Source of the DNA: Allonocardiopsis opalescens
GTDB taxonomy: Bacteria; Actinomycetota; Actinomycetes; Streptosporangiales; Streptosporangiaceae
Assembly: GCF_003002095.1 (NCBI RefSeq)
Contig: NZ_PVZC01000001.1
Coordinates: 1,302,001 to 1,366,000, forward strand
DNA length: 64,000 nucleotides
Direction: 5' to 3'
The translations under genes were made by a program, and so were the position numbers. The notes beneath the pieces are model-generated. The model was not told the origin of the DNA, ran no database searches, and worked only from the letters and a program-made list of their open reading frames with translations. This document shows, in pieces, positions 28,145-45,243 of this stretch (positions are counted from its first letter, which is position 1; every line of letters starts with the position of its first letter).

Positions 28145-29077
28145 TCAGCCGCCGAGTCCGGCGGCGATGGCCTCGGTGTTGGCGCGCATCATCTCCAGGT
28201 ACGTCGCCGCACCACCTCCCTCCTCGCTCAGCGACTCGGAGAACAGGGGGACGACCTCGATCTCCAGCCCCGCTTCCTCGGCCATGACCTGCGCGAGCCG
28301 GTCGGGCTGGGAGGAGTCGGCGAAGACCGCGGTGACCCCGGCCTCCCTGACCGCGGCGGCGAGGCCGCTGAGGTCGGCGGAGCTGGGCGAGGCCAGCGTC
28401 GTCCCGCTCGGGATGACCGCGCCGATCACCTCGAAGCCGTAGCGCTCGGCCAGGTAGCCGAAGACGTGGTGGTTGGTGACGAGGCTGCGCCGCTCGGGCG
28501 GGATCCGCGCGAAGCGCTCGGCCATCCAGGCGTCCAGCTCCTCCACCTGGGCGGAGTAGGCGGCGGCGTTGGCGCGGACCGCCTCGGCGTCGATCCCGGG
28601 CACGTCCTGGACGACGCGGTCGGCGATCAGGTCGACGGCCGTGCGGACCCGGGCGGGGTCGGTCCAGAAGTGCGGGTCGGGCTCGCCCGCCGACTCGTCG
28701 GAGCCGTAGTCGATCGGGTCGACGCCCTCGCCGACGGCCAGGACGGGGGTGCCGGCCTGCCGCGCCGCGTCGACATTGCGCAGCACGCCCTCTTCCAGGC
28801 CGAGGCCGTTGGCGACGACCAGGGAGGCGTCCTCGATCAGCGCCGCCTGCCGAGCGGAGATGCCGAAGGAGTGCGGGTCGGCGTTGGGCGGCATCAGCAC
28901 CGTCACCTCGGCCTCGTCGCCGACGACGGCCCGGGTGAGGTCGCCGAGGATGTTGGTGGTCACGACGATCCCCGACCGCTGCTCGGCTCCCGCGCAGCCG
29001 CCGAGCAGGGCGAGGGCGGCCAGCGCGGACACGACGGCGGCGGCCGCGCGGCGGACCGAGGGGCGGCGGGCGCTCAT
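28145..29077 (-). CDS. aztC: Zinc ABC transporter substrate-binding lipoprotein (AztC-like)
   Basis: Cluster A-I metal-binding protein of 310 residues with lipobox LGGC. Ligand positions match zinc receptors: His in PNADPHSFGIS, His in GEPDPHFWTDP, His in VTNHHVFGY and Asp in AVFADSSQPDR. There is no long His-rich loop as in ZnuA, which fits AztC. The ATG overlaps the stop of the upstream aztD copy 1 (ATGA), so the two are co-translated. It delivers zinc to the AztB permease. Confidence 0.9.
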   Translation of the reverse strand: MSARRPSVRRAAAAVVSALAALALLGGCAGAEQRSGIVVTTNILGDLTRAVVGDEAEVTVLMPPNADPHSFGISARQAALIEDASLVVANGLGLEEGVLRNVDAARQAGTPVLAVGEGVDPIDYGSDESAGEPDPHFWTDPARVRTAVDLIADRVVQDVPGIDAEAVRANAAAYSAQVEELDAWMAERFARIPPERRSLVTNHHVFGYLAERYGFEVIGAVIPSGTTLASPSSADLSGLAAAVREAGVTAVFADSSQPDRLAQVMAEEAGLEIEVVPLFSESLSEEGGGAATYLEMMRANTEAIAAGLGG

Positions 29078-30291
29078 CGGCCGGTCTCCACCATCAGGTC
29101 CGGGCTGATCTCCAGCTCGAAGGTGCGGGCGACGCGCAGCTCGTCGTTGTAGTCGATCTCGTAAACCGTGCCGGACGCGGGATCGTTGACGTAGGCGCGG
29201 CTGGTGTCGACCTGGATGACGGGAGCGGGTCCGGCCCCGGCCTCCACGGGTGCCGCCAGCAGCTCGGTCCGCGCGGTCTCCTCGCCGGTCTCCGGGTCCA
29301 GGGCGCGCAGCACGCCGTCCTCGGTGAGGGCCAGCACCGGTCCGCCCGCCCCGACGGCGTTCACCGCCACCAGCGCGTCGGCGGCGAAGCGCTCCCAGCC
29401 CCCGGCCTCGGTGTCCAGCACCCAGATCCCGTCTTCTCCGGCGGGCGCCACCAGGGTGGAGCTCGCCGGACGGCTGGTGAAGGTCTCCGGCCGCTCACCG
29501 TCGGGCACCGGGTCGGCGAAGCGGATCTTCTCGGCGGTGAAGGCGCCGTCGTCCTCGCCGACCACCAGGGCGCCGTCGGCGCAGCCGAAGACGGCGGCGT
29601 GCCGGGTGAGCGCGTGGCCCCGGGGCTCGGGGCAGGGCTCGGGGAGTTCACTGACAGGCGCGCCGTCGCGCCCGTGCACCCGGACGGCGCCGTCCGCGCC
29701 GGGCACCAGCACCTGCTGCCCGAAGGGGACCGCGGCCGGCGCCGGGGTGCCGGCGTCGATGGTCGCGGCCTCGGTGACGGACCCGTCCTCCAGGGCGGGC
29801 CGGTCGAGCAGGGCGACCGTGCCGTCGCCGAAGCCGACGGCCGTGACGGCGCTGTCGGTGGCCACGGCGCCGGGCCCCTCGCCGGTGACGGCGCCGACCG
29901 GCGCCACGTCGGTGCGGTAGTAGTGGCTGTGGTCGCCGTGGTCCACGGTCCACGCGCCGCTGTCGACGATGTGCGCGCCGCCGCGGTCGGCGGTGGTCAG
30001 ATAGGCGAAGCGCCCGTCGCCGCTGATGCCCGCGACGCCCTCCACCGTGCCCGCGTCCACGACCTCCTCGGTGATCAGGTCCAGCACCCGGACCGCGCCG
30101 GTCCCCGTGTCGGCGATCACGAGGCGCGACTGCGGCTCGGCCGTCTCCTCGGCGCCCTCGACGTAGCCGTGCGGGACCTCCGCCGACTCCGCCGGGGCCG
30201 GTGCGGCCTGGCCGCCGCAGCCGGCCAGCAGCAGTCCGGTGCCGACGGCGGTCGCGGCGAACGCCGTTCCCCTCCTGGTACTCCGCGTCAT
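29074..30291 (-). CDS. aztD: AztD-like zinc metallochaperone, copy 1 (lipoprotein)
   Basis: Lipoprotein of 405 residues (lipobox LLAGC). It contains a propeller with the zinc-related segments DHGDHSHYYRTD, EPCPEPRGHALTRHAAVFGCADGALV and a C-terminal YVNDPASGTVYEIDY, matching the AztD family. The His-rich patch at about residues 115-123 is the likely N-terminal metal site. It overlaps both neighbours by 4 bp, with aztB upstream and aztC downstream, so the three are one coupled unit. The frame extends far upstream, but only antisense to the permease. Confidence 0.88.
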   Translation of the reverse strand: MTRSTRRGTAFAATAVGTGLLLAGCGGQAAPAPAESAEVPHGYVEGAEETAEPQSRLVIADTGTGAVRVLDLITEEVVDAGTVEGVAGISGDGRFAYLTTADRGGAHIVDSGAWTVDHGDHSHYYRTDVAPVGAVTGEGPGAVATDSAVTAVGFGDGTVALLDRPALEDGSVTEAATIDAGTPAPAAVPFGQQVLVPGADGAVRVHGRDGAPVSELPEPCPEPRGHALTRHAAVFGCADGALVVGEDDGAFTAEKIRFADPVPDGERPETFTSRPASSTLVAPAGEDGIWVLDTEAGGWERFAADALVAVNAVGAGGPVLALTEDGVLRALDPETGEETARTELLAAPVEAGAGPAPVIQVDTSRAYVNDPASGTVYEIDYNDELRVARTFELEISPDLMVETGR

Positions 30292-31172
30292 GACGAGTGT
30301 TCGACCTCTCTTTCGGATCGGGCGGGGTCGGGGATGTCCGCCGCCTCGGGGACGGGTGCGCGCCGCAGCAGCCGGGAGGCCAGGGCGGACAGGAAGAAGG
30401 CGAGGACGGCGACGGCCGCGATGGTGGCGCCGCCGGCCGTGCCCCAGTACCAGGACAGGTAGAGGCCCACCAGGGTGGCGGCGGCGCCGATCAGCGCCGC
30501 GCCGAGCATGATCGCCGGGACGCTGCGCGCCCACAGCGCCGCGGCGGCGGGCGGGGCGATGAGCAGGCCGAAGACCAGCAGGGTGCCGACGATGTGGAAC
30601 GAGGCGACGACGGCCAGCATGACCAGCCCGAGCAGGGCCGCCCGCGCCGTCCGCGGATACAGGCCGAGCGTGTGCGCCTTGCGCGGGTCGAAGGCCAGGG
30701 CGACGAAGGAGCGGTGCCCGATGGCCGACACCGCGGCCGCGACCGCCAGGGCGGCGCCGAGGACGTAGAGGTCCTGCGCGCGGACGGCGAGCACGTCGCC
30801 GAAGAGGAAGCCGGTGACATCGACGGCGAACGAGCGCGAGTGCGAGACGATGATCACGCCCGCGGACAGCATGCCGACGAAGAGCAGGCCGATGCCGGTG
30901 TCCTGCGACAGGCGGGGCGAGCGGCCGAGCACCGTCAGCCCGAGCGCCATGGCGCCCGCGCTCAGTGCCGCCCCGATCATCAGGTTCACGCCGAGCAGCG
31001 AGGCGAGCGCCACGCCGGGCAGCATCGCGTGCGACATGGCGTCGCCGAGGAAGGCCATGCCGCGCAGCACCACCCAGGTTCCGGCGAGCGCGCAGATGGC
31101 CGAGACCAGCACACCGCCCCACAGCGCCCGCTGCACCATCGACGCCGCGAACGGTTCGAGTAGACCCTCCAT
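30288..31172 (-). CDS. aztB: Zinc ABC transporter permease (AztB-like)
   Basis: Membrane permease of 294 residues with eight to nine hydrophobic helices of the ABC-3 family (ZnuB/MntB type). Family marks are LRGMAFLGDAMSHAMLPGVALA and LGLTVLGRSPRLSQDTGIGLLF. The ATG at 31172 lies close to the Zur-like box; the open frame continues to 31871 antisense to aztA and is ignored. It is divergent from its ATPase gene aztA, sharing one control region. Confidence 0.92.
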   Translation of the reverse strand: MEGLLEPFAASMVQRALWGGVLVSAICALAGTWVVLRGMAFLGDAMSHAMLPGVALASLLGVNLMIGAALSAGAMALGLTVLGRSPRLSQDTGIGLLFVGMLSAGVIIVSHSRSFAVDVTGFLFGDVLAVRAQDLYVLGAALAVAAAVSAIGHRSFVALAFDPRKAHTLGLYPRTARAALLGLVMLAVVASFHIVGTLLVFGLLIAPPAAAALWARSVPAIMLGAALIGAAATLVGLYLSWYWGTAGGATIAAVAVLAFFLSALASRLLRRAPVPEAADIPDPARSEREVEHSS

Positions 31173-31187
31173 GATCGGCGATACTAC

Positions 31188-31210
31188 AATGATTATCATT
31201 CTCATTATCA
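31188..31210. promoter_or_regulatory. Zur/Fur-family box between aztB and aztA
   Basis: AATGATTATCATT (31188-31200) is a perfect 13-bp palindrome. ATTATCA occurs at 31192-31198 and again at 31204-31210. The AT-rich block is isolated in GC-rich DNA and sits 16 bp from aztB and 14 bp from aztA, where a zinc-loaded Zur could switch off both directions. The assignment to Zur rather than Fur is from context. Confidence 0.7.
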
Positions 31211-31223
31211 AATCGGGGGTGGC

Positions 31224-31976
31224 ATGAAGGGCATGAAGGGCCTGCGGAGCGCCGGCGGCGCGGAGCCGGAGCGGCCGGCGGACGCGGTGGCGTTTCACGG
31301 ACTGAGCGCGGGCTACCCGGGGCGCCTGGCGCTGCGCGGGGTGACGGCCGCCTTCCCGCGCGGCCGGACCACCGCCGTGCTGGGTCCCAACGGCTCGGGC
31401 AAGTCGACCCTGCTCGGAGTGGCCGCGGGCGCCATCGTTCCGCTCTCCGGCTCCGTCGCCCGCGCCGGCTCCACCCGGCCCGCCTTCGTCGTCCAGCGCA
31501 GCGCCGTCGCCGACGCCCTGCCGATCACCGTGGAGGAGACCGTCGCCATGGGCCGCTGGGCGCACCGCCGCCCGTGGCAGCGCCTGACCGCCCGCGACCG
31601 CGCAGTCGTGGCCGAGTGCCTGGCGCGGATGGGCCTGGAGGGGCTCGCCGATCGCCGGCTGGGCGACCTGTCCGGCGGCCAGCGCCAGCGCGCCCTCGTC
31701 GCCCAGGGCCTCGCCCAGGAATCCGACCTGCTCCTCCTCGACGAACCGACGGCCGGCCTGGACCTCGACGCCCAGGACCGCATCTCCACCACCCTCGCCG
31801 AGGCGTGCGAGCGCGGCACCACCGTCGTGCACGCTACCCACGACCTCGCCGACGCCGCCCGCGCCGACCACTGCCTGATCCTCAAGGACGGCCGCGTGCT
31901 CGCCCAGGGCCCGCCCGCCACCGCGCTGACCGGCGACACCGTCCGCGAGAGCTGGGGCCTGACCGGACTGCTGTGA
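31224..31976 (+). CDS. aztA: Zinc ABC transporter ATP-binding protein (AztA-like)
   Basis: Cytoplasmic ATPase of 250 residues. It has Walker A GPNGSGKST, Q-loop in VVQRSAV, signature LSGGQRQ, Walker B LLLLDEPTAG and H-loop ATHD. It powers the divergently encoded AztB/AztC importer. Two in-frame ATGs (31224 and 31233) are possible starts; GGGGGTGG precedes the first. Confidence 0.93.
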   Translation: MKGMKGLRSAGGAEPERPADAVAFHGLSAGYPGRLALRGVTAAFPRGRTTAVLGPNGSGKSTLLGVAAGAIVPLSGSVARAGSTRPAFVVQRSAVADALPITVEETVAMGRWAHRRPWQRLTARDRAVVAECLARMGLEGLADRRLGDLSGGQRQRALVAQGLAQESDLLLLDEPTAGLDLDAQDRISTTLAEACERGTTVVHATHDLADAARADHCLILKDGRVLAQGPPATALTGDTVRESWGLTGLL

Positions 31977-33263: not shown

Positions 33264-34436
33264 TCAGCCCTCTGTGGGCACGGCCCGGGCCCGGCGGCCG
33301 GCCGCTTCCAGCCAGACCAGGCCCGCCGAGGCGAGGGCGCAGACCAGCATCACCAGGTAGGCGGTCCGGTAGTCGGCGACGAGCGCCACGTAGCCGGCGG
33401 CCGGGGCGCCGGCGGCCAGGCCGATGTCCCAAAACGACGTGAACGCGCCCAGGGCGGCGCCCTGGCGGGAGGAGTCGGTGCGGTTGAGCACGACGAGCGC
33501 GAGGGCGGGGAAGAGCAGCGACAGGCCCGCGCCCATGACCAGGCCGCCGAGCACCGCCACCGCGATATTGGGCGCGAAGGCGACCAGCGCGAGCCCGACC
33601 GCCTCGGCCAGCGCCGACCACACCGCCACCCGGTTGCCGCCGTAGCGGTCCGGCCAGTGCCCGACGAACAGGCGCACACCCACATAGGTCACACCGAAGG
33701 CGTTCAGCGCCGCGATGCCGCCGCTGACCCCCAGCGCCGACATGTGCAGCGCGACGAAGGCGGCCAGCGCGGCGTAGCCGAACGCGGCCAGGGAGAGCGC
33801 GATCCCCGGCAGCACGACGGAGGACGGCAGCAGGCCGCCGCGCGCGCCCGTCCCCGGGGCGCGTACGGGGCGCGGCGCGGCCAGCACCAGCGCCACGGCG
33901 ACCACCGCCAGGCCGGCGCAGCTGAGCCAGACGGCCGCGAAGCCCGAGTAGGACATCACCACGGCGCCGAGCAGCGCGCCCAGCGTGATCCCCGACCACA
34001 TGGAGATCCCGTAGAGGCCGACCACCCGGCCGCGCCGCTCGGGCGGCGCGAGCGCGACCAGCCAGGCCGCCCCCGCGGTGTACACGGTGCCCTCGCCGAT
34101 GCCGTGCAGGACGCGGACCGCCACCAGCGACACCAGGTCGCCGGCGGCGAGGTAGGCCGCCCCCGCGAGCACGCACACGACGGCGCCCGCCAGCATCAGG
34201 TTCCGGTGCCCGCGCCGGTCCGCCACCCGGCCGGCCAGCGGACGGGTGATCACCGCCGACACCGCGATGGCGGCGACGGCGGTGCCGACCTCGACGTCGC
34301 TGCCGCCCAGCCTGTCCTGGACGAAGAACGGGACGGTGGCGAGGGTGGCGCCTACCCCGAGCAGGCAGCAGAACAGGGCGCCGAACAGCGGCAGGAACGG
34401 GCGGTAGAAGCGGGCCGCCTCGGCCGCGCGGCTCAC
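33264..34436 (-). CDS. MFS transporter of the encapsulin-associated cluster
   Basis: A 12-helix permease of 390 residues. TM1 reads FLPLFGALFCCLLGVGATLATVPFF, followed by RPLAGRVADRRGHRNLML (the motif-A loop) and VLHGIGEGTVYTAGAAWLVA, as in drug and metabolite efflux carriers. The GTG overlaps the stop of the shell-protein gene (GTGA), making it the last gene of the operon. Most likely it exports the pathway product or protects the producer. Confidence 0.87.
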   Translation of the reverse strand: MSRAAEAARFYRPFLPLFGALFCCLLGVGATLATVPFFVQDRLGGSDVEVGTAVAAIAVSAVITRPLAGRVADRRGHRNLMLAGAVVCVLAGAAYLAAGDLVSLVAVRVLHGIGEGTVYTAGAAWLVALAPPERRGRVVGLYGISMWSGITLGALLGAVVMSYSGFAAVWLSCAGLAVVAVALVLAAPRPVRAPGTGARGGLLPSSVVLPGIALSLAAFGYAALAAFVALHMSALGVSGGIAALNAFGVTYVGVRLFVGHWPDRYGGNRVAVWSALAEAVGLALVAFAPNIAVAVLGGLVMGAGLSLLFPALALVVLNRTDSSRQGAALGAFTSFWDIGLAAGAPAAGYVALVADYRTAYLVMLVCALASAGLVWLEAAGRRARAVPTEG

Positions 34437-35332
34437 GCGCGCCTGCCGGTGCCGGCGTCGGCCGTCGGCCGGACGTGGAAGAAGTGGGTGGGCAGGTGGA
34501 CCGCGAGTCCCTCGTGGATCTCCGCGCACACCGCCACGCCGGGCCGGGCGAAGGTCCCGGGCGGCGGTTCGGCGACCCGGATCACCGAGCGGCCGCCGTC
34601 GAGCAGCCGGGCGGCCATCGCGAAGTCGCCGACCAGCGCGCAGCCCGGCTCCACCATCCGGGTCCGGCTGATGAGGGTGCCGTTGCGGGCCAGGTCCGCG
34701 AGCAGCCCGGTGCCGACCATGCGGAAGTAGTAGTCCTGCGGGTTGACGATCATCGCGTGCGCGGTGGCGCCGATCTGCTCGATCTCGTTGCAGGCCGTCA
34801 TCAGGCCCGCCAGGTAGTCGCCCTGGTAGGGCAGGGTCGCGATGCCCGGATGGGTGAGCAGCCCGTGCTCGCCGATCGTCAGCGCCTGGTTCTCGGCGGT
34901 GGCCAGCCGCACCAGCAGCCGGAAGTCGATGAAGGCCGCCAGCCCCTCGGGGTCCTCGAGCAGTTCCTCGGGCAGCTGCACCCACGCCGAAATGGGGTGC
35001 ACGTCCGCCTCCGCCGTCCCGGAGCGGAAGGCCGCCTCGGGGCGCAGCGCCGACTCGCGCACGGTGGCGGCCTCGGCGGCGCCGGGCCGGTCCTCGGTCC
35101 AGAACCGGACCGGGCCGGCCCCGGCCGGGCGCTTGCGGAACAGGTTGCGCACCGTCACCCGGGGCCGGTCCTTGGTCGGCTGGAAGGCGTCGGTGATGGT
35201 GAAGTCGAAGCGCACCGCCGCGCCGGTGCCCTCGGCGGCGAAGGCGCGGGCGAAGGCCGCGCCGGGAGAGGCGGCGGGGGAGTCGGCGGGCGGCGCGGCG
35301 GCGGGCGTGCGTGCGGGGGACGGGGAGACCAT
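34433..35332 (-). CDS. HK97-fold shell protein, family 3 (natural-product) encapsulin-like
   Basis: Predicted to self-assemble into an icosahedral nanocompartment. Of 299 residues, about 1-40 are Ala/Pro-rich and disordered. Residues 75-110 resemble the E-loop (VRFWTEDRPG, AATVRESALRPEA). Residues 113-165 match the P-domain and spine helix of HK97 capsids: HPISAWVQLPEELLEDPEG, then a long helix ending RLATAENQAL and TIGEHGLLTHPGI. The A-domain follows with HAMIVNPQDYYFRM, GTLISRTRMVEPGCALVGDF and AEIHEGLAVHLPTHFF. No phage terminase, portal or protease is present. It lies between sulfotransferase (11 bp) and exporter (4-bp overlap) genes, the setting reported for family 3 encapsulins. A domesticated phage capsid is the origin in any case. 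Confidence 0.85.
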   Translation of the reverse strand: MVSPSPARTPAAAPPADSPAASPGAAFARAFAAEGTGAAVRFDFTITDAFQPTKDRPRVTVRNLFRKRPAGAGPVRFWTEDRPGAAEAATVRESALRPEAAFRSGTAEADVHPISAWVQLPEELLEDPEGLAAFIDFRLLVRLATAENQALTIGEHGLLTHPGIATLPYQGDYLAGLMTACNEIEQIGATAHAMIVNPQDYYFRMVGTGLLADLARNGTLISRTRMVEPGCALVGDFAMAARLLDGGRSVIRVAEPPPGTFARPGVAVCAEIHEGLAVHLPTHFFHVRPTADAGTGRRA

Positions 35333-35343
35333 GGCTGCTCCGC

Positions 35344-36063
35344 TCAGATCGCGTGCTTGACGAGCTCGTCGTAGAAGGGGCGGTGGTAGTCGTAGTGGGA
35401 GCGCAGCAGCGCGTCGTCGTCCACCGTGGCGGTGTATCGGCTCGCGGGCGCCTGGAAGCCGGAGCTGGCGCTGGCCGCCCGGTGCCACTGGCGGGTGCGG
35501 CTCCACTCGGCGCGGTCCCCGGGCCGCCAGCTCAGCGCCTCGGCCACGAAGGGCAGGCCGACCGCGGCGCAGTAGGCGGCCACCACGGCGGCGGGGTCGG
35601 CGAGCAGCCGGTCGGCGTCCACCACCGCGGGCGCCCGCCCCGTCACGGCGCGGACCAGCGCGAAGATGTCGTACAGGTGCTCGTAGCCGAACTCGTGCCG
35701 GGCGGCTGTGGGCTTCATCGCGTGCAGTGAGGCGATGGCCGGGCGCGGGTCGCGGACGATGAAGGTGTGGGTGATGTCGGCGATCCGCTCCGGGTGCTCG
35801 AACAGGTAGCCGTAGCGGTACTCGACGGTGTCCTTGAAGAACACCGGGCGGTCGCTGGCCAGCTCCCTGAGCCGGTCGAAGACCTCCGCCGCCGAGCGCG
35901 CCACCACGGTGCCGCCCGCCCCGTCCGGCAGCGCCACCTCGCCGGTGTCCACCAGGGTGACCAGCGGTTCGTGCACCACCGTGACATCGCCGCGCTCGAT
36001 CATCATGCGCAGGAAGGCGGTGGACAGCGAGCGCGGGTGCGCCCACAGCGCGATCACCGTCAC
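35344..36063 (-). CDS. PAPS-dependent sulfotransferase family protein
   Basis: A cytosolic enzyme of 239 residues. ALWAHPRSLSTAF at the N-terminus is the 5'-phosphosulfate-binding loop. FFKDTVEYRYGYL and IVRDPRPAIASLHAM, with Arg and Ser in the 3'-phosphate site, complete the PAPS pocket. It would transfer sulfate to a hydroxyl or amine. The GTG at 36063 overlaps the aldo/keto reductase stop. It is the immediate upstream neighbour of the shell protein and therefore a candidate cargo enzyme; no obvious targeting peptide is recognisable. Confidence 0.87.
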   Translation of the reverse strand: MTVIALWAHPRSLSTAFLRMMIERGDVTVVHEPLVTLVDTGEVALPDGAGGTVVARSAAEVFDRLRELASDRPVFFKDTVEYRYGYLFEHPERIADITHTFIVRDPRPAIASLHAMKPTAARHEFGYEHLYDIFALVRAVTGRAPAVVDADRLLADPAAVVAAYCAAVGLPFVAEALSWRPGDRAEWSRTRQWHRAASASSGFQAPASRYTATVDDDALLRSHYDYHRPFYDELVKHAI

Positions 36064-37043
36064 ATCGACCACCCGGTGGGGACGCGGTCCCAGCGGTGCT
36101 CGCGCAGCCGGGCCGCCAGCCCGGCGTCCAGCGGCCGGCCGTCGGAGACGGCCAGGTTGGCGCGCACGTGCTCGATCCTGCGCATACCGGGGATGACGGT
36201 GCTGACGGCCGGATGGTGCAGGATGAACCGGAGCGCCAGTTCGGCCATCGTCATCCCCTCGGGCACCAGCGCGCGCAGCCGCTCGGCGCGCTCGACGCTG
36301 GGGCCGAGGTTCTCGGGGCCGAAGTAGGTGGCCCGCCAGTCGTCCTCGGGGAAGGTGGTCGTGCGGGTCAGCGCCCCGGTGAGCGAGCCCTCGTCGAAGG
36401 GGACGCGGGCGATGATGCCGATGCCCTCGCGGGCGGCCCGCCCGAACAGCTCGTCCTCGGGCGCCTGGTCGAAGATGTTGTAGATGACCTGGATGACGTC
36501 GATCAGGCCGGTGTCGAGCGCGGCGAAGCAGTTGGCCGGCTCCCAGCGGTTCACGCTGATGCCCACCCCGCCGATGACGCCCTCGGCCCGCAGCTCGGTG
36601 ATCGCCGCCTGCCAGCGCTCGTCCTTGGCCCAGCGGTCCTCCCAGACGTGGAACTGCATGAGGTCGATGCGGTCCACGCCCAGGTTCTCCAGGCTGCGGT
36701 ACGTGAACTCGCGGATGTGGCCGGGCGGGAAGACCTCGTCGAGGGTGTCCTCGGGGCGCGGGGGCCACTCCCGGTTGAGCGGCGGGATCTTGCTGGCGAC
36801 GTACAGCCGCCGGTCCGGGTGGCGGGCCAGCAGTGCCCCGAGCAGCTGCTCGCTGACGCCGCGGCCGTACACCCAGGCGGTGTCGAAGAAATTGCAGCCC
36901 AGCTCGACGGCCTCGTCCAGGCAGCCCGGCGCGGTGTCGTAGTCCCAGCCGGTGAAGCCGCCGGGCCCGCCGCCGATGCCCCACATGCCGTACCCGACCT
37001 CGCTGACCTGCCAGCCGAGCCGGCCCATCGTGCGGTACCGCAT
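36060..37043 (-). CDS. Aldo/keto reductase of the encapsulin-associated cluster
   Basis: NAD(P)H-dependent carbonyl reductase of 327 residues. The catalytic tetrad is recognisable as Asp in FFDTAWVYG, Tyr of the same stretch, Lys in VASKIPP and His in MQFHVWED. The start at 37043 (MRYRTMGRLGWQVSEVG, standard for the family) follows GGGGAGCAAG; ATG 37055 is an alternative. It could reduce an aldehyde released by the A-T-reductase protein encoded 49 bp upstream, giving an alcohol for sulfation. That order of steps is inferred. Confidence 0.9.
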   Translation of the reverse strand: MRYRTMGRLGWQVSEVGYGMWGIGGGPGGFTGWDYDTAPGCLDEAVELGCNFFDTAWVYGRGVSEQLLGALLARHPDRRLYVASKIPPLNREWPPRPEDTLDEVFPPGHIREFTYRSLENLGVDRIDLMQFHVWEDRWAKDERWQAAITELRAEGVIGGVGISVNRWEPANCFAALDTGLIDVIQVIYNIFDQAPEDELFGRAAREGIGIIARVPFDEGSLTGALTRTTTFPEDDWRATYFGPENLGPSVERAERLRALVPEGMTMAELALRFILHHPAVSTVIPGMRRIEHVRANLAVSDGRPLDAGLAARLREHRWDRVPTGWSM

Positions 37044-37092
37044 CTTGCTCCCCATCTCTGTGTCGTCCGCCGTCACGGTGTCGTGGCGGCCG

Positions 37093-40000
37093 CTAGGCAC
37101 CGGCCTGCTGGAGTTCGCGGGTCTCGCCCGGCGGCCCGAGCAGCCCGCCGTGGTGGTCGAAGTAGCGGCGGTAGGCGGCGATCGGGCCGCCGAGCCAGTC
37201 GTCGGTCAGGCCCTGCCGCCGCTCCAGCCGGCGGCAGGCGCTCTTGTCGAACAGGCGCGGGTTGTCGGTGAGCAGCCGGCCGAACATCCGCTCGGCCGCC
37301 GCCTCGCCGCCGTCGCCCGTGTCGGGCAGCAGCGCGAGCAGGGTGTTGAGCTCGCGGTCGCCGCTGCGGACCGCCGCCTCGCGCAGCCGCGCCAGGAACT
37401 CCGTGCACGGCACCCGGCGCACCAGCGTGCCGAAGCGGGAGAACACCTCGGCGAAGCAGACGCTCTCGGGGTGGAAGACGTGCAGGTCGCGTCCCCACGC
37501 GTCCGGGTCGAACACGGCGGCGGCCATGCGCGCCGCGGCGTAGTCCACCGGGGTGTAGTCCGAGCGGATGTCGGTGTTGGGGCAGACGCCGAGCCGGTGG
37601 AAGGCCGACAGCAGCAGGTGGGTGAGCGCCCGGGGGTTGGGGTGGCCGTCGTCGGCGGGCATCACCTCGCCGAGCCGCAGCACGGTGACCACCGCCCCGC
37701 GGCGGCGCGCCCCGGCCAGGTAGCGCTCGGCCGCCCACTTCGACCGGCTGTAGCCGCTCACCGGCACCGCCACCTCGGCCAGGTCGACGGACTCGGGCAG
37801 CACGGCGCCCCGGCGGGCCGCTTCGGCCTCCAGCACGCCGAGCGTGGAGACGTGGTGCAGCGGCTTGGGCCGCCGGTCCAGGGCGAGCCGCAGCATCTCG
37901 CGGGTGCCGAGCACATTGGGCGCGCGGTGCGCGCCGTAGTCGTACAGGAAGTTCACCAGCGCGCCGGCGTGCAGCAGCGCGTCGCAGCCGCGGGCCAGCC
38001 GGTCCCAGGTGGCGGCGTCCAGGCCGAGCCGGGGGAGGGTGAGGTCGCCGGCGACCGCGCTGAGCCGCGCGGCGGACCGCTGCCCGTCGAGCCCCTGCGC
38101 GGCCAGCGCCTCGCGGACCCGGCGCAGCGCCGCGGCGTCCTCGCCCGCCCGGACCAGGCAGACGACCCGCGCGTCGGTCCGCTCCAGCAGCTCGTGCACC
38201 AGCCGGGCCCCGACGAAGCCGGAGGCGCCGGTGACCAGCACGGTGCCCGGCGCCCGGGACGGCGGCGCGGGCGCGGCGGGGAAGGCGGCCGGCGCGCTCG
38301 CGTCGCGGCGCAGCAGCGCCTCGTCGTCGGTGTCGGCGGCGGGCCGGGCCAGGCGGTCGTCGATCAGCCGGGCCAGCGCCGTGGCGCGCGGCTGGTCGAA
38401 CAGGTCCCGCACCCCGACGGGGACGCCGAAGGCGGCCCGCAGCGCGGCCACCGCGGCCACGGCGCTGATGGAGTCGGCTCCGGCGCGCATGACGTCGTCG
38501 TCGGGGCCGAGGGCCGGCTGGTGCAGCACCGAGCGCAGCACGCGCAGGACGCGGGCCGCCGTGCCGTCGTCGTCGGGGCCGGCGGGCGCGGCGGGCGGGC
38601 CGAGCAGCCGGCGGTCCAGCACCTCGGCCAGCGCGCGCCGGTCGACCTTGCCGTTGTCGGTGAGCGGCATCGCGGCCAGCACGACGTAGTAGCGCGGCAG
38701 GCTCGTGCGCGGCAGCACCCGCGTCAGGCGCTCGCGCAGCGCCTCCTCGGTCAGCCGCTCGTCGCCGGCGGCGAACAGGGCCAGCGCGCGGGCGCCCCCG
38801 GCGGTGGCGGCCAGCACCTTGGCCTGGCGGACGCCGGGGACGCCCTCGGCGGCCACCTCGATCTCGCCCGGTTCGATCCGCACGCCGCCGACCTTGACCT
38901 GGACGTCGGCGCGCCCCTGGAAGTGCAGCCGGCCGGCCGCGTCGTAGTAGCCCAGGTCCCCGGTCCGGTACAGCCGGTCTCCGGGCACGGACGCGAAGGG
39001 GTTGGGCACGAAGACCGCGCCGGTGCGCGCCGGGTCGCCGCGGTAGCCGGCGCCCAGGCAGGCGCCGCCGACCACGATCTCGCCGGTGGCGCCGGGCGGC
39101 AGCGGGCGCAGCGCGTCGTCCACCACGACGGCGTAGCAGTTGTCGATGGGCCGGCCGAGCGGCACCGCGTCGCCGTCGGCCGCCTGGACCGGGTGGAAGA
39201 CCATGCCGATGGAGGTCTCGGTCGGGCCGTAGCCGTTGGTGACCCGCAGGCCGGGCAGCAGCGTCCGCAGCCGGTGCACCATCCGGGGGTTGATCTCCTC
39301 GCCGCCCACCACCAGTTCGCGCAGCGACGCGATGCGCCGCAGCGCGGCGGGGTCGCCGTCGACCATGGCCACCACCACGTTGAAGATGCTCGGCACGAAG
39401 TCGGTCAGGGTGACGCCGTGCGCGGCGATCGCGGCGATGGTGTGCTCCAGGTCCAGGAACTCGTCCTGGGGCGGGACGACCGTGCGGCCGCCGATCGTCA
39501 GCGGCCAGAACAGCTGCCAGACCGAGGAGTCGAAGGTGTGCCTGCTGTTCTGCAGCACGACGTGGTCGGCGGTGGGCTCGAAGTAGCGCGACATGAAGCG
39601 GAAGCGGTTGGTCAGCCCGCCGTGCAGGTTGACCGCGCACTTGGGGGTGCCGGTGGTGCCGGAGGTGAAGATCCCGTAGATCGGGTCGTCGGGGCGCAGC
39701 GGCACACCGGGGCGGTGCGGGCTCGGGGCGATCCGGTCGACCGCCACCTCCAGGGCCCGGCCCGGGTGGTGGTGCGGCGGGGCGGTGTGCGCGGCGTGCA
39801 GCACCAGCCGCGGCGCCAGTACGTCGAGCGCGGTCGCGATCCTTGCCTCCGGCCAGGCCGGGTCGAGTGGCACGAAGGCGGCGCCGAGCTTCATCAGGGC
39901 GAGGTAGCCGGTGACCAGCTCCAGGCTGTTGCCCATCAGCACCGGCACGGTGTCGCCGCGCCCGACGCCGCGGTCGGCCAGCGCCGCGGCCAGCCCGTTG

Positions 40001-40704
40001 GCCAGTTCGTCGAGTTCCCGGTATCCGAGGGTGCGTCCGAGGTGGGTCACCGCGGGACGGTCGGGGGCGAGGTCGGCCTGCCGCTCGATCATGGTGGGGA
40101 TCGCGACGAAGGGGCCGTAGGGCACCGCGCGGCCGGCCAGGGGGCCGAGCACCAGCGCGCGGGAGCGCGCGCCGATCCCGGGAGCCGCGGCGGCCGGCAG
40201 CCGCGGGTCGGCCAGCAGCGCGGCCAGCACCTCGGCGAAGACCTCGGCGGCCGCGGTGCGCGCCCGCCACCACGGGTCCGCGCGGTCGCAGTCGACCGCG
40301 GCGGTGATGGCGGCGGCGGTCGGCCGGCAGGTGACCAGCACCCCGGCGCCGGTCGCCGGCTCCGCCTCGGCGGCCTCGCCACCGCTCAGCAGGCGGACGT
40401 GCATCAGTTCGCCGGCCGGACCGGAGGCGGGCCGGGCCAGTTCGCGCAGGCGGGCCCGCGCCGACGCTCCGTCGAGGTGGCGCACCTCCTCGGGCGGCTC
40501 GGGCAGGTCCACGGCCGCCGGCCCGGCCGTCACCCGCAGGCCGCAGCGGCGGCCCAGCCGGGCCAGGGTCTCGACCGCGGCGAGCGCGGCCGTTTCGGCC
40601 GTCACCTCGGGGCCGGTCAGGCCGCCTCCCGGCGATTCGCGGGAGTAGCGGCCGTCGTCGTGGTGGTCTGGGTTCGCACCTGGCGCGCCGGCCGGAAAGC
40701 TCAT
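37093..40704 (-). CDS. NRPS-like adenylation-thiolation-reductase protein (carboxylic acid reductase type)
   Basis: A single-module enzyme of 1203 residues that activates a carboxylic acid as AMP-ester, loads it on a phosphopantetheine arm and releases it as aldehyde. Residues 1-200 form an unassigned N-terminal region. The A domain (201-700) has A3 FTSGTTGTPK, A5 NGYGPTE, A7 YRTGDLGYY, A8 GRADVQVKVGG and A10 NGKVDR with Lys686. The T domain carries Ser745 in AGADSISAV. The thioester reductase (820-1203) has TGASGFVGARL and Tyr985-x-x-x-Lys989. Asp392 in FDSSVWQ is the position that binds the amino group in amino-acid-activating domains. ATG 40704 follows GGAGGG. Confidence 0.92.
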   Translation of the reverse strand: MSFPAGAPGANPDHHDDGRYSRESPGGGLTGPEVTAETAALAAVETLARLGRRCGLRVTAGPAAVDLPEPPEEVRHLDGASARARLRELARPASGPAGELMHVRLLSGGEAAEAEPATGAGVLVTCRPTAAAITAAVDCDRADPWWRARTAAAEVFAEVLAALLADPRLPAAAAPGIGARSRALVLGPLAGRAVPYGPFVAIPTMIERQADLAPDRPAVTHLGRTLGYRELDELANGLAAALADRGVGRGDTVPVLMGNSLELVTGYLALMKLGAAFVPLDPAWPEARIATALDVLAPRLVLHAAHTAPPHHHPGRALEVAVDRIAPSPHRPGVPLRPDDPIYGIFTSGTTGTPKCAVNLHGGLTNRFRFMSRYFEPTADHVVLQNSRHTFDSSVWQLFWPLTIGGRTVVPPQDEFLDLEHTIAAIAAHGVTLTDFVPSIFNVVVAMVDGDPAALRRIASLRELVVGGEEINPRMVHRLRTLLPGLRVTNGYGPTETSIGMVFHPVQAADGDAVPLGRPIDNCYAVVVDDALRPLPPGATGEIVVGGACLGAGYRGDPARTGAVFVPNPFASVPGDRLYRTGDLGYYDAAGRLHFQGRADVQVKVGGVRIEPGEIEVAAEGVPGVRQAKVLAATAGGARALALFAAGDERLTEEALRERLTRVLPRTSLPRYYVVLAAMPLTDNGKVDRRALAEVLDRRLLGPPAAPAGPDDDGTAARVLRVLRSVLHQPALGPDDDVMRAGADSISAVAAVAALRAAFGVPVGVRDLFDQPRATALARLIDDRLARPAADTDDEALLRRDASAPAAFPAAPAPPSRAPGTVLVTGASGFVGARLVHELLERTDARVVCLVRAGEDAAALRRVREALAAQGLDGQRSAARLSAVAGDLTLPRLGLDAATWDRLARGCDALLHAGALVNFLYDYGAHRAPNVLGTREMLRLALDRRPKPLHHVSTLGVLEAEAARRGAVLPESVDLAEVAVPVSGYSRSKWAAERYLAGARRRGAVVTVLRLGEVMPADDGHPNPRALTHLLLSAFHRLGVCPNTDIRSDYTPVDYAAARMAAAVFDPDAWGRDLHVFHPESVCFAEVFSRFGTLVRRVPCTEFLARLREAAVRSGDRELNTLLALLPDTGDGGEAAAERMFGRLLTDNPRLFDKSACRRLERRQGLTDDWLGGPIAAYRRYFDHHGGLLGPPGETRELQQAGA

Positions 40705-41106: not shown

Positions 41107-42216
41107 TCAATTGAGTCGGTCGGGCGACACCGCGGCCGCGGCGCCCTGCGCCGCACCCGTCGCCGCCGCTCCGGTCACCGCCTCGGCCAGCAGCCGGCCC
41201 ACCGCCGGGGCGGTCTGCACGCCGTAGCCGCCCAGCGCGGCCAGCCAGAAGAAGCCGGGGGCGGAGCGCTCGGCACCCACCACCGGAGTGTCGTCGGCCG
41301 TGCTGCTGCGCAGCCCGGCCCAGGCGCGCACCACCCTGCGGACCGAGAGGCTCGTCGCGGCCTGCAATCGTTCGACGCCGAGAGCGACGTCGATGTCGGC
41401 GGGCCTGGCGTCCACGGGCGGCGAGGGTGTGGCGTCCATCGGCGACACCAGCAGCCGTCCCGACTCCGGCTTGGCGTAGAAGCTGTCGCGCACATCGCAC
41501 AGCATCGGCCACCCGGCCGCCGAGGTGCCCGCGGGCAGGTCCACCAGGAAGGCGGTGCGCCGCAGCGGCGTGAGCCCGATCCTCCGCACCCCGGCCAGCC
41601 CGGCCACCTCGTCGGCCCAGGCCCCCGCGGCGTTCACCACCACGGGCGCGGTGAACACACCGGCGTCGGTGTCCGCCCGCCAGCTGCCGCCCCGCCGGGC
41701 CAGCGCACGCACCCGCGCGCCCGTCACCACCCGGCCGCCGGCCCTCCGCACGCCCCGCAGGAAGCCCTGGTGCGCCGCGTCGACATCGATGTCCATCGCA
41801 CCGGGGCGGTACAGCGCCCGGCTGACGCGCTCCCTCCGCACGATCGGCACCAGCTCGGCCGCCTCACGGCGCCCGATCTCGCGGGCCGGCTCCGCCGCTG
41901 CCGCACCGTCGGCGAGCGCCGCCTCGAAAGCCCCCTCGTCACCCGGCGGACACAGCGCCAGCACACCGCGCGGACCCAGCACCGGATGGTCGGCGAAACC
42001 CTCAGGCGGGTCCCGGTAGAAGGCCCGCCCCGCGGCCGTGAGCCCGCGCACCGCGGCATTCCCGAAGTACTCCGACAGCAGCGCCGCCGAGCGCCCGGTG
42101 GAGTGGTGCCCGGCCGCCGCCTCCATGTCGAGCACGACCGCCCGTCCACTGCCCGAAAGGAAGTAACCCGCGGCGGCACCGGCGATACCGCCGCCCACGA
42201 TGAGGAAGTCGGTCAC
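41107..42216 (-). CDS. FAD-dependent D-amino-acid oxidase/dehydrogenase-like protein
   Basis: Flavoenzyme of 369 residues of the DAO fold. The dinucleotide site is DFLIVGGGIAGAAAGYFL, followed by HHSTGRSAALLSEYFG, typical of glycine oxidase and D-arginine dehydrogenase relatives. VVNAAGAWADEVA and the C-terminal GGYGVQTAPAVGRLLAEAV close the FAD site. GAGGAGAT precedes the GTG at 42216. It lies upstream of the A-T-reductase gene on the same strand but about 400 bp apart, so membership of the cluster is possible rather than certain. It would oxidise an amine or amino acid to an imine. Confidence 0.88.
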   Translation of the reverse strand: MTDFLIVGGGIAGAAAGYFLSGSGRAVVLDMEAAAGHHSTGRSAALLSEYFGNAAVRGLTAAGRAFYRDPPEGFADHPVLGPRGVLALCPPGDEGAFEAALADGAAAAEPAREIGRREAAELVPIVRRERVSRALYRPGAMDIDVDAAHQGFLRGVRRAGGRVVTGARVRALARRGGSWRADTDAGVFTAPVVVNAAGAWADEVAGLAGVRRIGLTPLRRTAFLVDLPAGTSAAGWPMLCDVRDSFYAKPESGRLLVSPMDATPSPPVDARPADIDVALGVERLQAATSLSVRRVVRAWAGLRSSTADDTPVVGAERSAPGFFWLAALGGYGVQTAPAVGRLLAEAVTGAAATGAAQGAAAAVSPDRLN

Positions 42217-43860: not shown

Positions 43861-45243
43861 TCACGCACCTGGGCCGCCGTCTCCCCGGGGCGGGCGATGG
43901 GACGGGGGGCGGCGCAGCGGGTTGGACACGTCGGGCGGGGCCGGTTCCGGGACGGGCGGACGGCCGGGGTCGCGGACGGGGGTGAAGGCGACCGGGAGCG
44001 CCTCCAGGCCGGGGGTGGCCAGGCTGAGGCGGTGGCGCAGCCGGTCGGCGGGAAGGGTGGGGTGCAGGTCGGGCAGGGCCTGGAGGAGTGCGGTGAGGGC
44101 GTGGGTGGCGATGGTGGCCGCCAGGTGGTGGGCGGGGCAGCGGTGCGCTCCGGCGCCGAAGGCCAGGTGCGCCCGCTGGCCTGCGCGGACGCCGTCGCCG
44201 GTGAGTCCGGGGTCGGTGTGGGCGGCGGCGATGCCCACCAGGACGTGGTCGCCGGCGCGGACCAGGGCGCGGCCCATTCGGGTGGTGCGGGTGGCGTAGC
44301 GGTCGGCCACCGCCAGCGGCGGATGCCGCCACAGGGCGGCTTCGACCGCGTCGGCCGGGCGCACACCGCCGCCGGCCATCGCCGCGCGCAGTACCGGGTC
44401 GTAGACGAGGGCCGCCACCGTGTGGGTGACGAGGTCGCCCAGCAGCGGAGCGTGCGCGGCCAGCATCGCCACCTGGTCGCGCACCTCCGTCTCCCGCAGC
44501 GCCGGATCCTCCAGGAGGCGGCCGAGCACACCCCCCGACGGCTCCGCCGTCGCGGGGGCGGCCGGAGCGGGAGCCGCGGCGGGTACCGCCCGCCGCCGCC
44601 GGGGTGTGTCCTTCGGGGCGGCCGCGGCGTCACCGTTCAGGCGGCGCTGAGCGGTGACGGCCTCGGCGAAGGCCAGCACGGGATCGGGCGCGCCGGGAGC
44701 GGGCCGGGCTTCGGTGAGCCGGTGCAGGGCGTCGGCCTCGGCCGGGGCGAGGCCGAGGATGCGGGCGGTGAGGTGGTGGGCCAGCGGCCGGGCGAACTGG
44801 CCGGCGATCTCGGCCTGGCCGGTGGGGGCGAAGCGACTGATGAGCCCCTCGGCGATGAGCCGGGTGGCCTCCCCGAGCCGGGCGGGTCTCAGCGGCTCCA
44901 GCGCGTCGGCGAGCCCGCCCCGCAGCCGCTGGTGCTCGGTCCCGTCGGTGCCGGCCGCCTGTCTCAGCCGATCGCCGTCCGCCGCACCGCCACCGGCACC
45001 GGAGGGACGTCTCCGGCGCGGATCGGAGGAGAAGCGGTCGGCATCGCGCAGCACGTCCAGCACCGCGTGGTAGTCCAGCACCAGCCACGCCCCCACCCCG
45101 CGCGCCACCTGCACCGGGGCGATCGGACCGAACTCCGCCCGCAGCTGCGCGACCAGGGCGTCCATACCGCCCGCGACGGCCAGCGGCGCGCCGTAAACCG
45201 GCACCGCCCGCGCCAGGGTCACCACCTCGTCCGAACGCGCCAT
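43861..45243 (-). CDS. Cytochrome P450, CYP157-like, lacking the ExxR arginine
   Basis: A 460-residue haem protein. The haem-binding loop FGAGAHRCPAHHLA with the proximal Cys is intact. The K-helix reads EAALWRHPP, so the normally invariant Arg of ExxR is Trp; the family CYP157 is known for the equivalent EQSLW. The I-helix AAHAPLLGDLV lacks the usual AGxET oxygen-activation motif. Residues about 205-245 are a Pro/Ala/Arg-rich low-complexity insert, and a Pro-rich tail follows the last conserved helix. No ferredoxin gene is adjacent. Catalytic competence is uncertain. Confidence 0.87.
   Translation of the reverse strand: MARSDEVVTLARAVPVYGAPLAVAGGMDALVAQLRAEFGPIAPVQVARGVGAWLVLDYHAVLDVLRDADRFSSDPRRRRPSGAGGGAADGDRLRQAAGTDGTEHQRLRGGLADALEPLRPARLGEATRLIAEGLISRFAPTGQAEIAGQFARPLAHHLTARILGLAPAEADALHRLTEARPAPGAPDPVLAFAEAVTAQRRLNGDAAAAPKDTPRRRRAVPAAAPAPAAPATAEPSGGVLGRLLEDPALRETEVRDQVAMLAAHAPLLGDLVTHTVAALVYDPVLRAAMAGGGVRPADAVEAALWRHPPLAVADRYATRTTRMGRALVRAGDHVLVGIAAAHTDPGLTGDGVRAGQRAHLAFGAGAHRCPAHHLAATIATHALTALLQALPDLHPTLPADRLRHRLSLATPGLEALPVAFTPVRDPGRPPVPEPAPPDVSNPLRRPPSHRPPRGDGGPGA

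What the first reader, a model, noticed from the sequence alone, without database searches (positions are those of the whole stretch)
33264..40704. Encapsulin-type HK97 shell protein inside a small natural-product operon
The 299-residue product at 34433-35332 shows HK97-fold landmarks in order: E-loop, P-domain with LPEELLEDPEG and a long spine helix, A-domain with IVNPQDYYF and GCALVGDF, and a C-terminal strand AEIHEGLAVHLPTHFF. It is flanked within a few bases by a sulfotransferase and an MFS exporter, behind an aldo/keto reductase and an A-T-reductase NRPS-like protein. No phage structural or packaging gene is present. Surveys of virus-derived nanocompartments (Giessen and co-workers) describe a poorly studied class, family 3, in actinobacterial biosynthetic clusters often with sulfotransferases. 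Inference: a nanocompartment that confines a reactive amino-aldehyde or sulfated intermediate. This exact gene set is, to my knowledge, uncharacterised.
Basis: partly seen in the sequence, partly recalled or inferred. Interest (0 to 1): 0.95.

Follow-up and report, generated by a model that had tools for sequence, protein, structure and literature searches.

The report
Virus-like shell in sulfation gene cassette
This bacterial genome carries a virus-capsid-like shell gene locked into a six-gene cassette that recurs in distant bacteria and would turn an amino acid into a sulfated amino alcohol, which is likely then closed into a reactive three-membered aziridine ring with the shell's help; that would give a testable job to a shell family whose function is unknown.

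Summary

Comparison does not single out aldehyde confinement. Of 71 non-redundant shell loci, 70 have a sulfotransferase (the miss is a cut contig), from two Pfam families; recognised aldehyde-forming genes are in 42, and occur without a shell elsewhere. The window's sulfotransferase family also sits beside the known aziridine synthase AziU3/U2 (PDB 7WUW/7WUX). Shell and AziU3/U2 were never found in one locus: 0 of 77 shell loci, 0 of 24 AziU3 loci.

Best reading (inferred): amino acid -> aldehyde -> amino alcohol -> sulfate ester -> aziridine, a biological Wenker reaction, with the shell at the sulfate-elimination step that AziU3/U2 performs elsewhere. Assembly, cargo, substrate and product are untested. 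Known family, new variant with a sharper, testable role.

The parts
34433..35332 (-). family 3 encapsulin shell protein, 299 aa, predicted HK97 fold
34658..34666 (-). Arg223-Thr-Arg225 of the shell; both Arg in 77 of 77 shells, other residues commonest in viral capsids
35344..36072 (-). sulfotransferase (Sulfotransfer_5), same Pfam family as the one beside AziU3/U2
   Evidence: Pfam E 3.6e-14; tree; start 36072 from codon-usage caller and orthologues
36060..37007 (-). aldo/keto reductase; predicted amino-aldehyde reductase
   Evidence: Pfam Aldo_ket_red E 3.7e-49; start chosen by alignment of 17 orthologues; codon-usage caller put it at 37076
37093..40704 (-). NRPS-like A-T-R protein, 1203 aa; predicted to activate an amino acid and release it reductively
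39043..40086 (-). adenylation domain (residues 207-554)
   Evidence: PF00501 E 2.9e-77
38362..38553 (-). carrier (T) domain (residues 718-781)
   Evidence: PF00550 E 4.5e-11
37531..38235 (-). thioester reductase (R) domain (residues 824-1058)
   Evidence: PF07993 E 1.1e-49; TIGR01746; PDB MxaA E 9.8e-60
33264..34436 (-). MFS exporter (predicted), start overlaps shell stop by 4 bases
   Evidence: MFS_1 E 1.9e-44
41107..42216 (-).
   Evidence: PF01266 E 1.3e-49; nearest solved relative D-arginine dehydrogenase DauA E 2e-96; in 15 of 17 cassettes, the other two on short contigs

Best explanation
The window holds a family 3 encapsulin shell gene in a conserved six-gene cassette that would make a sulfated amino alcohol from one amino acid, and the shell likely serves the next step, loss of sulfate with ring closure to an aziridine. 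Steps: (1) the A-T-R protein loads an amino acid and releases it by reduction (inferred from domains; substrate unknown); (2) the AKR completes reduction to a 2-amino-1-alcohol (inferred); (3) the sulfotransferase puts sulfate on the primary OH (inferred; its family sits beside the aziridine synthase AziU3/U2 in other clusters, shown by sequence); (4) the amine displaces the sulfate to give an aziridine, the Wenker reaction (inferred); the HK97-type shell houses or templates this step and keeps the alkylating ring from the cell (inferred); (5) the FAD oxidase may oxidise the amine or aziridine, and the MFS protein exports the product (inferred). Shown: the genes, their conservation, the shell-sulfotransferase linkage, and that shell and AziU3/U2 were not found together in any locus looked at.
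For: 70 of 71 non-redundant shell loci carry a sulfotransferase within nine genes: 17 of the window's cluster, always with AKR, and 53 of another, never both; the one miss, L112, begins at a contig end. All 32 scanned members of the first kind (17 cassette, 15 beside or near AziU3) match Pfam Sulfotransfer_5; 51 of the 53 others match Sulfotransfer_3. The reverse also holds: that second sulfotransferase was found in 7 of 246 Streptomyces genomes, and 6 of the 7 have the shell gene adjacent. PAPS-supply genes sit in three beta-proteobacterial cassettes, L036, L037, L038 (APS kinase or CysD/N-type domains confirmed for L037 and L038). The protein pair beside Sulfotransfer_5 in shell-less clusters matches AziU3 (E 1.5e-70) and AziU2 (E 8.4e-52) of PDB 7WUW/7WUX. 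AziU3 and AziU2 profiles: 0 of 77 shell loci. Shell profile: 0 of 24 AziU3 loci, of which 15 have Sulfotransfer_5 in view. The predicted R-CH(NH2)-CH2OH has the amine/primary-alcohol arrangement that I recall for the AziU3/U2 substrate, named (5S,6S)-O7-sulfo DADH in the passage read of PMC11168924. In the cassette the shell is the only protein without an obvious reaction or transport role.
Against: No product, activity or particle is known. Shell and AziU3/U2 are unrelated, and clusters differ upstream: LysW-type shell loci have SDR and no DegT aminotransferase (17 of 17 and 0 of 17), AziU3 loci have DegT in 22 of 24, so the shell need not fill the same slot; on the other hand 26 of 36 remaining shell loci do have a DegT-cluster gene. 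9 of 24 AziU3 loci show no sulfotransferase in view. The shell-less A-T-R/AKR/sulfotransferase cluster has neither shell nor AziU3/U2, so sulfation can occur without either. The window's genome itself has an AziU3/U2 cluster on another contig, which could act in trans. No shell-specific cargo tail was seen on AKR or sulfotransferase. Sulfate might stay in the final product, as Andreas and Giessen proposed for related clusters.
Confidence: 0.38

Rival explanations
1. The HK97-fold protein is itself the catalyst of sulfate elimination (or of another post-sulfation step), with or without forming a closed shell.
For: Residues invariant in 77 of 77 shells but usually different in 33 viral/prophage capsid rows: P121, V141, R142, N148, E185, R223, R225. 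No other unassigned protein in the cassette and no AziU3/U2. No cargo tag found.
Against: Invariant residues may serve shell assembly; their place in three dimensions was not examined; no HK97-fold enzyme of this kind is known to me.
Confidence: 0.17
2. The shell confines the amino-aldehyde released by the R domain, as the reader and Andreas and Giessen suggest.
For: A-T-R is seen in 15 of 17 cassettes (the other two have little sequence on that side) and AKR in 17; LysY-type semialdehyde dehydrogenases are in another 25 of 71 shell loci; Andreas and Giessen propose sequestration of aldehydes or ketones.
Against: 29 of 71 shell loci have neither kind of aldehyde-forming gene in view, yet 28 of them have the sulfotransferase; A-T-R/AKR/sulfotransferase without shell in two genomes; LysY-type genes without shell in 21 of 24 AziU3 loci.
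Confidence: 0.17
3. The sulfate ester is the end product and the shell stores or scaffolds it.
For: Andreas and Giessen read SDR plus sulfotransferase as making sulfated natural products; the shell-less relative could do this.
Against: The same sulfotransferase family sits next to aziridine synthase genes.
Confidence: 0.18
4. Domesticated prophage capsid with no link to the pathway.
For: HK97 fold and viral ancestry.
Against: Fixed AKR-sulfotransferase-shell order in 17 loci across two phyla, 4-base overlap with the exporter gene in the window, clear gap in score between family members (283 bits or more) and other capsids (53 bits or less) in 297 genomes.
Confidence: 0.02

Closest known systems
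Family 3 (natural product) encapsulins, Andreas and Giessen 2021 (PMC8346489)
   Same: Shell family model, HK97 fold, biosynthetic neighbourhood, sulfotransferase
   Different: AKR and Sulfotransfer_5 in place of SDR and Sulfotransfer_3; A-T-R supply of the amine; sulfotransferase found in 70 of 71 loci; role re-read as sulfate-leaving-group chemistry
AziU3/U2 aziridine synthase clusters (azinomycin/vazabitide type; PDB 7WUW, 7WUX, 8GS1)
   Same: Same Pfam sulfotransferase family; amino alcohol sulfate as predicted intermediate
   Different: No AziU3/U2 near the cassette, no LysW or transketolase in it; shell instead
Reductive-release NRPS (MxaA, MxcG)
   Same: R domain; MxaA is the best-listed solved hit confined to the R domain, MxcG the best NCBIfam match
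   Different: Single A-T-R module, predicted to be followed by sulfation
Family 1 encapsulins (Linocin_M18)
   Different: No Linocin_M18 match in this genome; no cargo peptide found

Membership tests
Family 3 encapsulin | Shell protein over the NF041188 cut-off | tested here: met
   363 vs 180 bits
Family 3 encapsulin | HK97 fold | tested here: met
Family 3 encapsulin | In a biosynthetic gene cluster, with no phage genes | tested here: met
   (ten neighbouring proteins scanned)
Family 3 encapsulin | Self-assembly into a closed shell | not testable with these tools
   no assembly computation or experiment
Family 3 encapsulin | Dedicated cargo loading | tested here: inconclusive
   no shell-specific terminal motif seen on AKR or sulfotransferase; the AKR tail is kept in shell-less relatives
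Family 1 encapsulin | Linocin_M18 (PF04454) shell | tested here: not met
   0 matches in the genome
AziU3/U2 aziridine pathway | AziU3 and AziU2 genes in the locus | tested here: not met
   0 of 77 shell loci, window included; present elsewhere in the genome
AziU3/U2 aziridine pathway | Sulfotransferase of the same family | tested here: met
   Sulfotransfer_5 in 32 of 32; 36-51% identity between the two groups, separate clades
HK97 prophage | Portal, terminase or other structural genes nearby | tested here: not met
   ten neighbours, no phage structural PHROG

The most novel reading that the evidence does not exclude
A virus-derived HK97 capsid protein has become an aziridine-forming enzyme: family 3 'encapsulins' are a second solution, unrelated to AziU3/U2, to the sulfate-elimination step, using capsid residues that are invariant in the family but not in phages (R142, N148, E185, R223, R225), and the alkylating product is born inside its own container.
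Probability: 0.13. Interest if true: 0.95.

Novelty: new variant of a known kind. Interest (0 to 1): 0.72.

Why it matters
The role of family 3 encapsulins was unknown in the 2021 survey, and the papers listed by five searches here (openly licensed papers only, judged from listings) include no later functional study of one. The comparison points to one reaction type, sulfation followed by loss of sulfate, instead of general aldehyde confinement, and names a six-gene cassette small enough to express whole. If right, it links virus-derived compartments to alkylating natural products and offers either a safe container for, or a new catalyst of, aziridine synthesis.

Tried and rejected
Is the shell itself AziU3? 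A profile of 40 relatives and a distant member both match only capsids in the PDB, and hhalign finds no similarity to AziU3 or AziU2: rejected.

Cargo tag: the AKR tail HRWDR.P...WS looked like one in 17 cassettes, but the two shell-less relatives keep it: rejected. The N-terminal stretch of the A-T-R protein is present in some orthologues only.

Common origin of the two sulfotransferase groups as the reason for the linkage: they fall in separate clusters at the blastp cut-off used and in different Pfam families.

Substrate of the A domain: the pocket was looked at by eye against recalled GrsA positions; no assignment made.

AlkZ-like resistance gene: eight places in the genome, none in the window; not used as evidence.

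Limits: shell loci were looked at within about 10 kb and nine genes each side. 60 of the 63 other over-cut-off places were fetched (those in G150, G289, G274 were not). Three of 74 loci were dropped as duplicates. The genome search scored only the best six to eight candidates in most genomes, so its counts may be low; its AKR comparison covered 61 genomes. Viral rows include near-identical contigs and one protein seen twice. In the sulfotransferase tree row L216 was labelled with the AziU3 group although its 4.9-kb contig shows no AziU3. The names LysX, SDR, cysDN, DegT and so on were given to clusters from one or a few members scanned in Pfam. Expected overlap of shell and AziU3 genomes by chance is 57x16/297 = 3.1 (hand sum); observed 5 (G000, G097, G101, G105, G275), so no avoidance at genome level, only at locus level.

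Papers: PMC8346489 abstract, section 9 and passages; PMC12559475, PMC11168924, PMC9570651, PMC10764440 passages only; Kurosawa et al. 2022 (doi 10.1021/jacs.2c07243) is not held, seen only in reference lists and otherwise recalled; others by search listing only. Wenker conditions, chloromyxamide chemistry and DADH structure are recalled. Supplementary files of PMC8346489 were not available.

Full report

The gene set. Reading along the minus strand: FAD oxidase 42216-41107; a 402-base gap with no promoter or terminator match in a simple scan; A-T-R protein 40704-37093; AKR 37007-36060; sulfotransferase 36072-35344; shell 35332-34433; MFS 34436-33264. AKR to MFS overlap or nearly touch. In the A-T-R alignment of 15 orthologues the A-domain FDS motif (SDS in two) and the R-domain GxxGxxG, Thr and YxxxK positions are kept, so the enzyme looks intact. 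MxaA is the best-listed solved hit confined to the R domain, D-arginine dehydrogenase DauA the closest to the oxidase. The amino acid activated is not known.

Distribution. NF041188 is over its cut-off in 57 of 297 genomes of the order, with no score between 283 and 53 bits, and in 2 of 396 drawn across the phylum, the window's own included. Named loci with the same cassette come from Catellatospora, Micromonospora, Nonomuraea, Actinoallomurus and Streptomyces, and from the beta-proteobacteria Trinickia, Ramlibacter and Paracidovorax. The viral-contig scan gave 22 loci, best identity 31%; phage records gave one weak hit, plasmids none.

Neighbourhood comparison. I called genes by codon usage in the window and 73 fetched loci (13 named, 60 unnamed) and clustered them. 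After removing three duplicates, 71 loci remain. A sulfotransferase lies within nine genes in 70 of 71; the miss, L112, starts at a contig end with the shell as first gene. Seventeen have the window's kind together with AKR, 53 have the other kind, 49 have an SDR; SDR never goes with the window's kind, AKR never with the other. All 17 of the first kind match Pfam Sulfotransfer_5; of the 53, 51 match Sulfotransfer_3. A reductase, SDR or AKR, is in 66 of 71. So a pair 'carbonyl reductase plus sulfotransferase' is kept although both members were swapped for other families. Starting from the second sulfotransferase instead of the shell, 7 of 246 Streptomyces genomes gave a match and 6 of 7 have the shell gene next to it; the seventh (39% identity, G805) has no shell, and its neighbours are mostly unlike the shell clusters.

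Aldehyde-forming genes do not explain the linkage. AKR (with A-T-R) is in 17 of 71 loci and a LysY-type semialdehyde dehydrogenase in 25, none with both; 29 have neither, and 28 of these 29 have the sulfotransferase (the LysY-type cluster was confirmed by Pfam on one member). Other aldehyde sources could be missed.

The cassette is one branch. Cassette shells form one clade in a tree of 69 shells (support 97/94), with the beta-proteobacterial ones inside it, while loci with the amino-group carrier LysW are scattered over several branches. The tree program warned that some long branches meet, so deep joins are uncertain. All 17 cassettes have the sulfotransferase next to the shell and AKR next to that; the A-T-R gene is seen in 15, the other two (L038, L040) having little sequence on that side; the oxidase in 15, the other two (L040, L042) being short contigs. 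Exporter type varies: MFS cluster 5 in 12, another MFS cluster in 4, none in view in L042.

A control without shell. The nearest AKR outside the cassette in 61 genomes searched (64% identity, G048 and G029) sits in clusters with a sulfotransferase nearest to the cassette's (46-48%), an A-T-R protein (about 42%; A, T and R domains confirmed for L184), cysDN-like genes, a further NRPS-like protein and an argininosuccinate-synthase-like protein, with neither shell nor AziU3/U2 in the fetched stretch. The aldehyde-forming steps therefore do not by themselves need the shell. This also counts against any claim that sulfation needs it.

The link to aziridines. Clusters found with a LysY-type query (20 loci fetched) include eight with a two-gene unit, in five of them directly beside a Sulfotransfer_5 gene. 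The two proteins of one of these, L230, were compared with the PDB: they are AziU3 and AziU2, E 1.5e-70 and 8.4e-52 to 7WUW/7WUX, with 8GS1 (Azi29/Azi28) equally close; the others were assigned with profiles built from the eight. AziU3/U2 is described as functionally an aziridine synthase acting by sulfate displacement in the passage read of PMC12559475. A search of 297 genomes of the window's order gave 16 more AziU3 genomes, the window's own among them on contig C7. In all 24 AziU3 loci: shell 0, Sulfotransfer_5 cluster in 15, the other sulfotransferase 0, DegT aminotransferase 22, transketolase 22. In 77 shell loci: AziU3 0, AziU2 0. The window's sulfotransferase belongs to the same Pfam family as those 15, in a separate clade (shell-linked 17 rows, support 100/100).

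Inference. The A-T-R and AKR steps predict a 2-amino-1-alcohol. That is the arrangement which, as I recall, AziU3/U2 handles at C6-C7 of its sulfated substrate. A sulfotransferase of the same family, and no AziU3/U2 in the locus, leave the ring closure to chemistry alone, to the oxidase, or to the shell. Uncatalysed Wenker closure needs strong base (recalled), so help is expected, and the shell is the remaining protein. Whether it helps by holding enzyme and product or by catalysis is open. Seven positions invariant in 77 shells (P121, V141, R142, N148, E185, R223, R225) usually differ in viral capsids, while others such as E99, R138, G154, P198 and D236 are often shared.

Weak points. The upstream enzymes of LysW-type shell clusters and AziU3 clusters differ (SDR against DegT), so the exchange is not a clean one-for-one swap, although 26 of 36 other shell loci have a DegT-cluster gene. 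Locus-level exclusion could reflect separate ancestry of whole clusters. Nine of 24 AziU3 loci show no sulfotransferase in view. Five genomes hold both systems against about three expected, so help in trans is possible there, the window's genome included. No experiment supports any step.

Compared with what is known. Andreas and Giessen (2021) list 132 family 3 systems, call their role unknown, note sulfotransferase/SDR pairs in many, and propose sequestration of aldehydes or ketones. The present result adds the linkage to sulfotransferase in 70 of 71 loci, the AKR/Sulfotransfer_5 cassette with its oxidase, the shell-less control, and the exclusion with AziU3/U2. A search for papers holding both 'encapsulin' and 'aziridine' found one, a vanadium catalyst review, judged from its title and abstract in the listing. 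Only openly licensed papers were searched, so the idea may be in print elsewhere.

Noticed in passing
L246 (G000:C7:33000-52900): The window's genome has a separate AziU3/U2 cluster with transketolase, DegT aminotransferase, NRPS-like protein and Sulfotransfer_5, an azinomycin/vazabitide-like set.
   Followed up: partly
L184, L185: Shell-less A-T-R, AKR, sulfotransferase and cysDN-like cluster with a larger NRPS-like protein and an argininosuccinate-synthase-like protein.
   Followed up: partly
L151:1222-3732, L154:919-3401: A YcaO protein (Pfam match seen for L151) beside 47-49 aa peptides sharing QPGTCICW, next to a LysW/shell cluster: looks like a RiPP joined to the shell pathway.
   Followed up: no
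L096:1-17998 and similar loci: Shell clusters with a LanM-like protein (DUF4135 + LANC_like), a fused alpha-beta glycyl-tRNA synthetase and chorismate synthase close by; the synthetase could be a spare, resistant target.
   Followed up: partly
G000 (whole genome): Eight AlkZ-like (PF06224) places, seven of them well over the cut-off; by an abstract seen in a search listing, AlkZ is tied to azinomycin B production and self-resistance.
   Followed up: no
L155:10536-17876, L156:2221-10441: Reduced Streptomyces shell clusters: shell, sulfotransferase, cysDNC-like genes, a transaldolase-like protein (Pfam, L155) and a HAD-like protein (by eye), with no NRPS in view.
   Followed up: partly
28145-31871: Genes downstream of the cassette on the same strand; 30288-31871 has an ABC-3 metal-transporter permease match.
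   Followed up: no
43861-45243: 460-aa predicted protein upstream of the cassette without a Pfam match.
   Followed up: no
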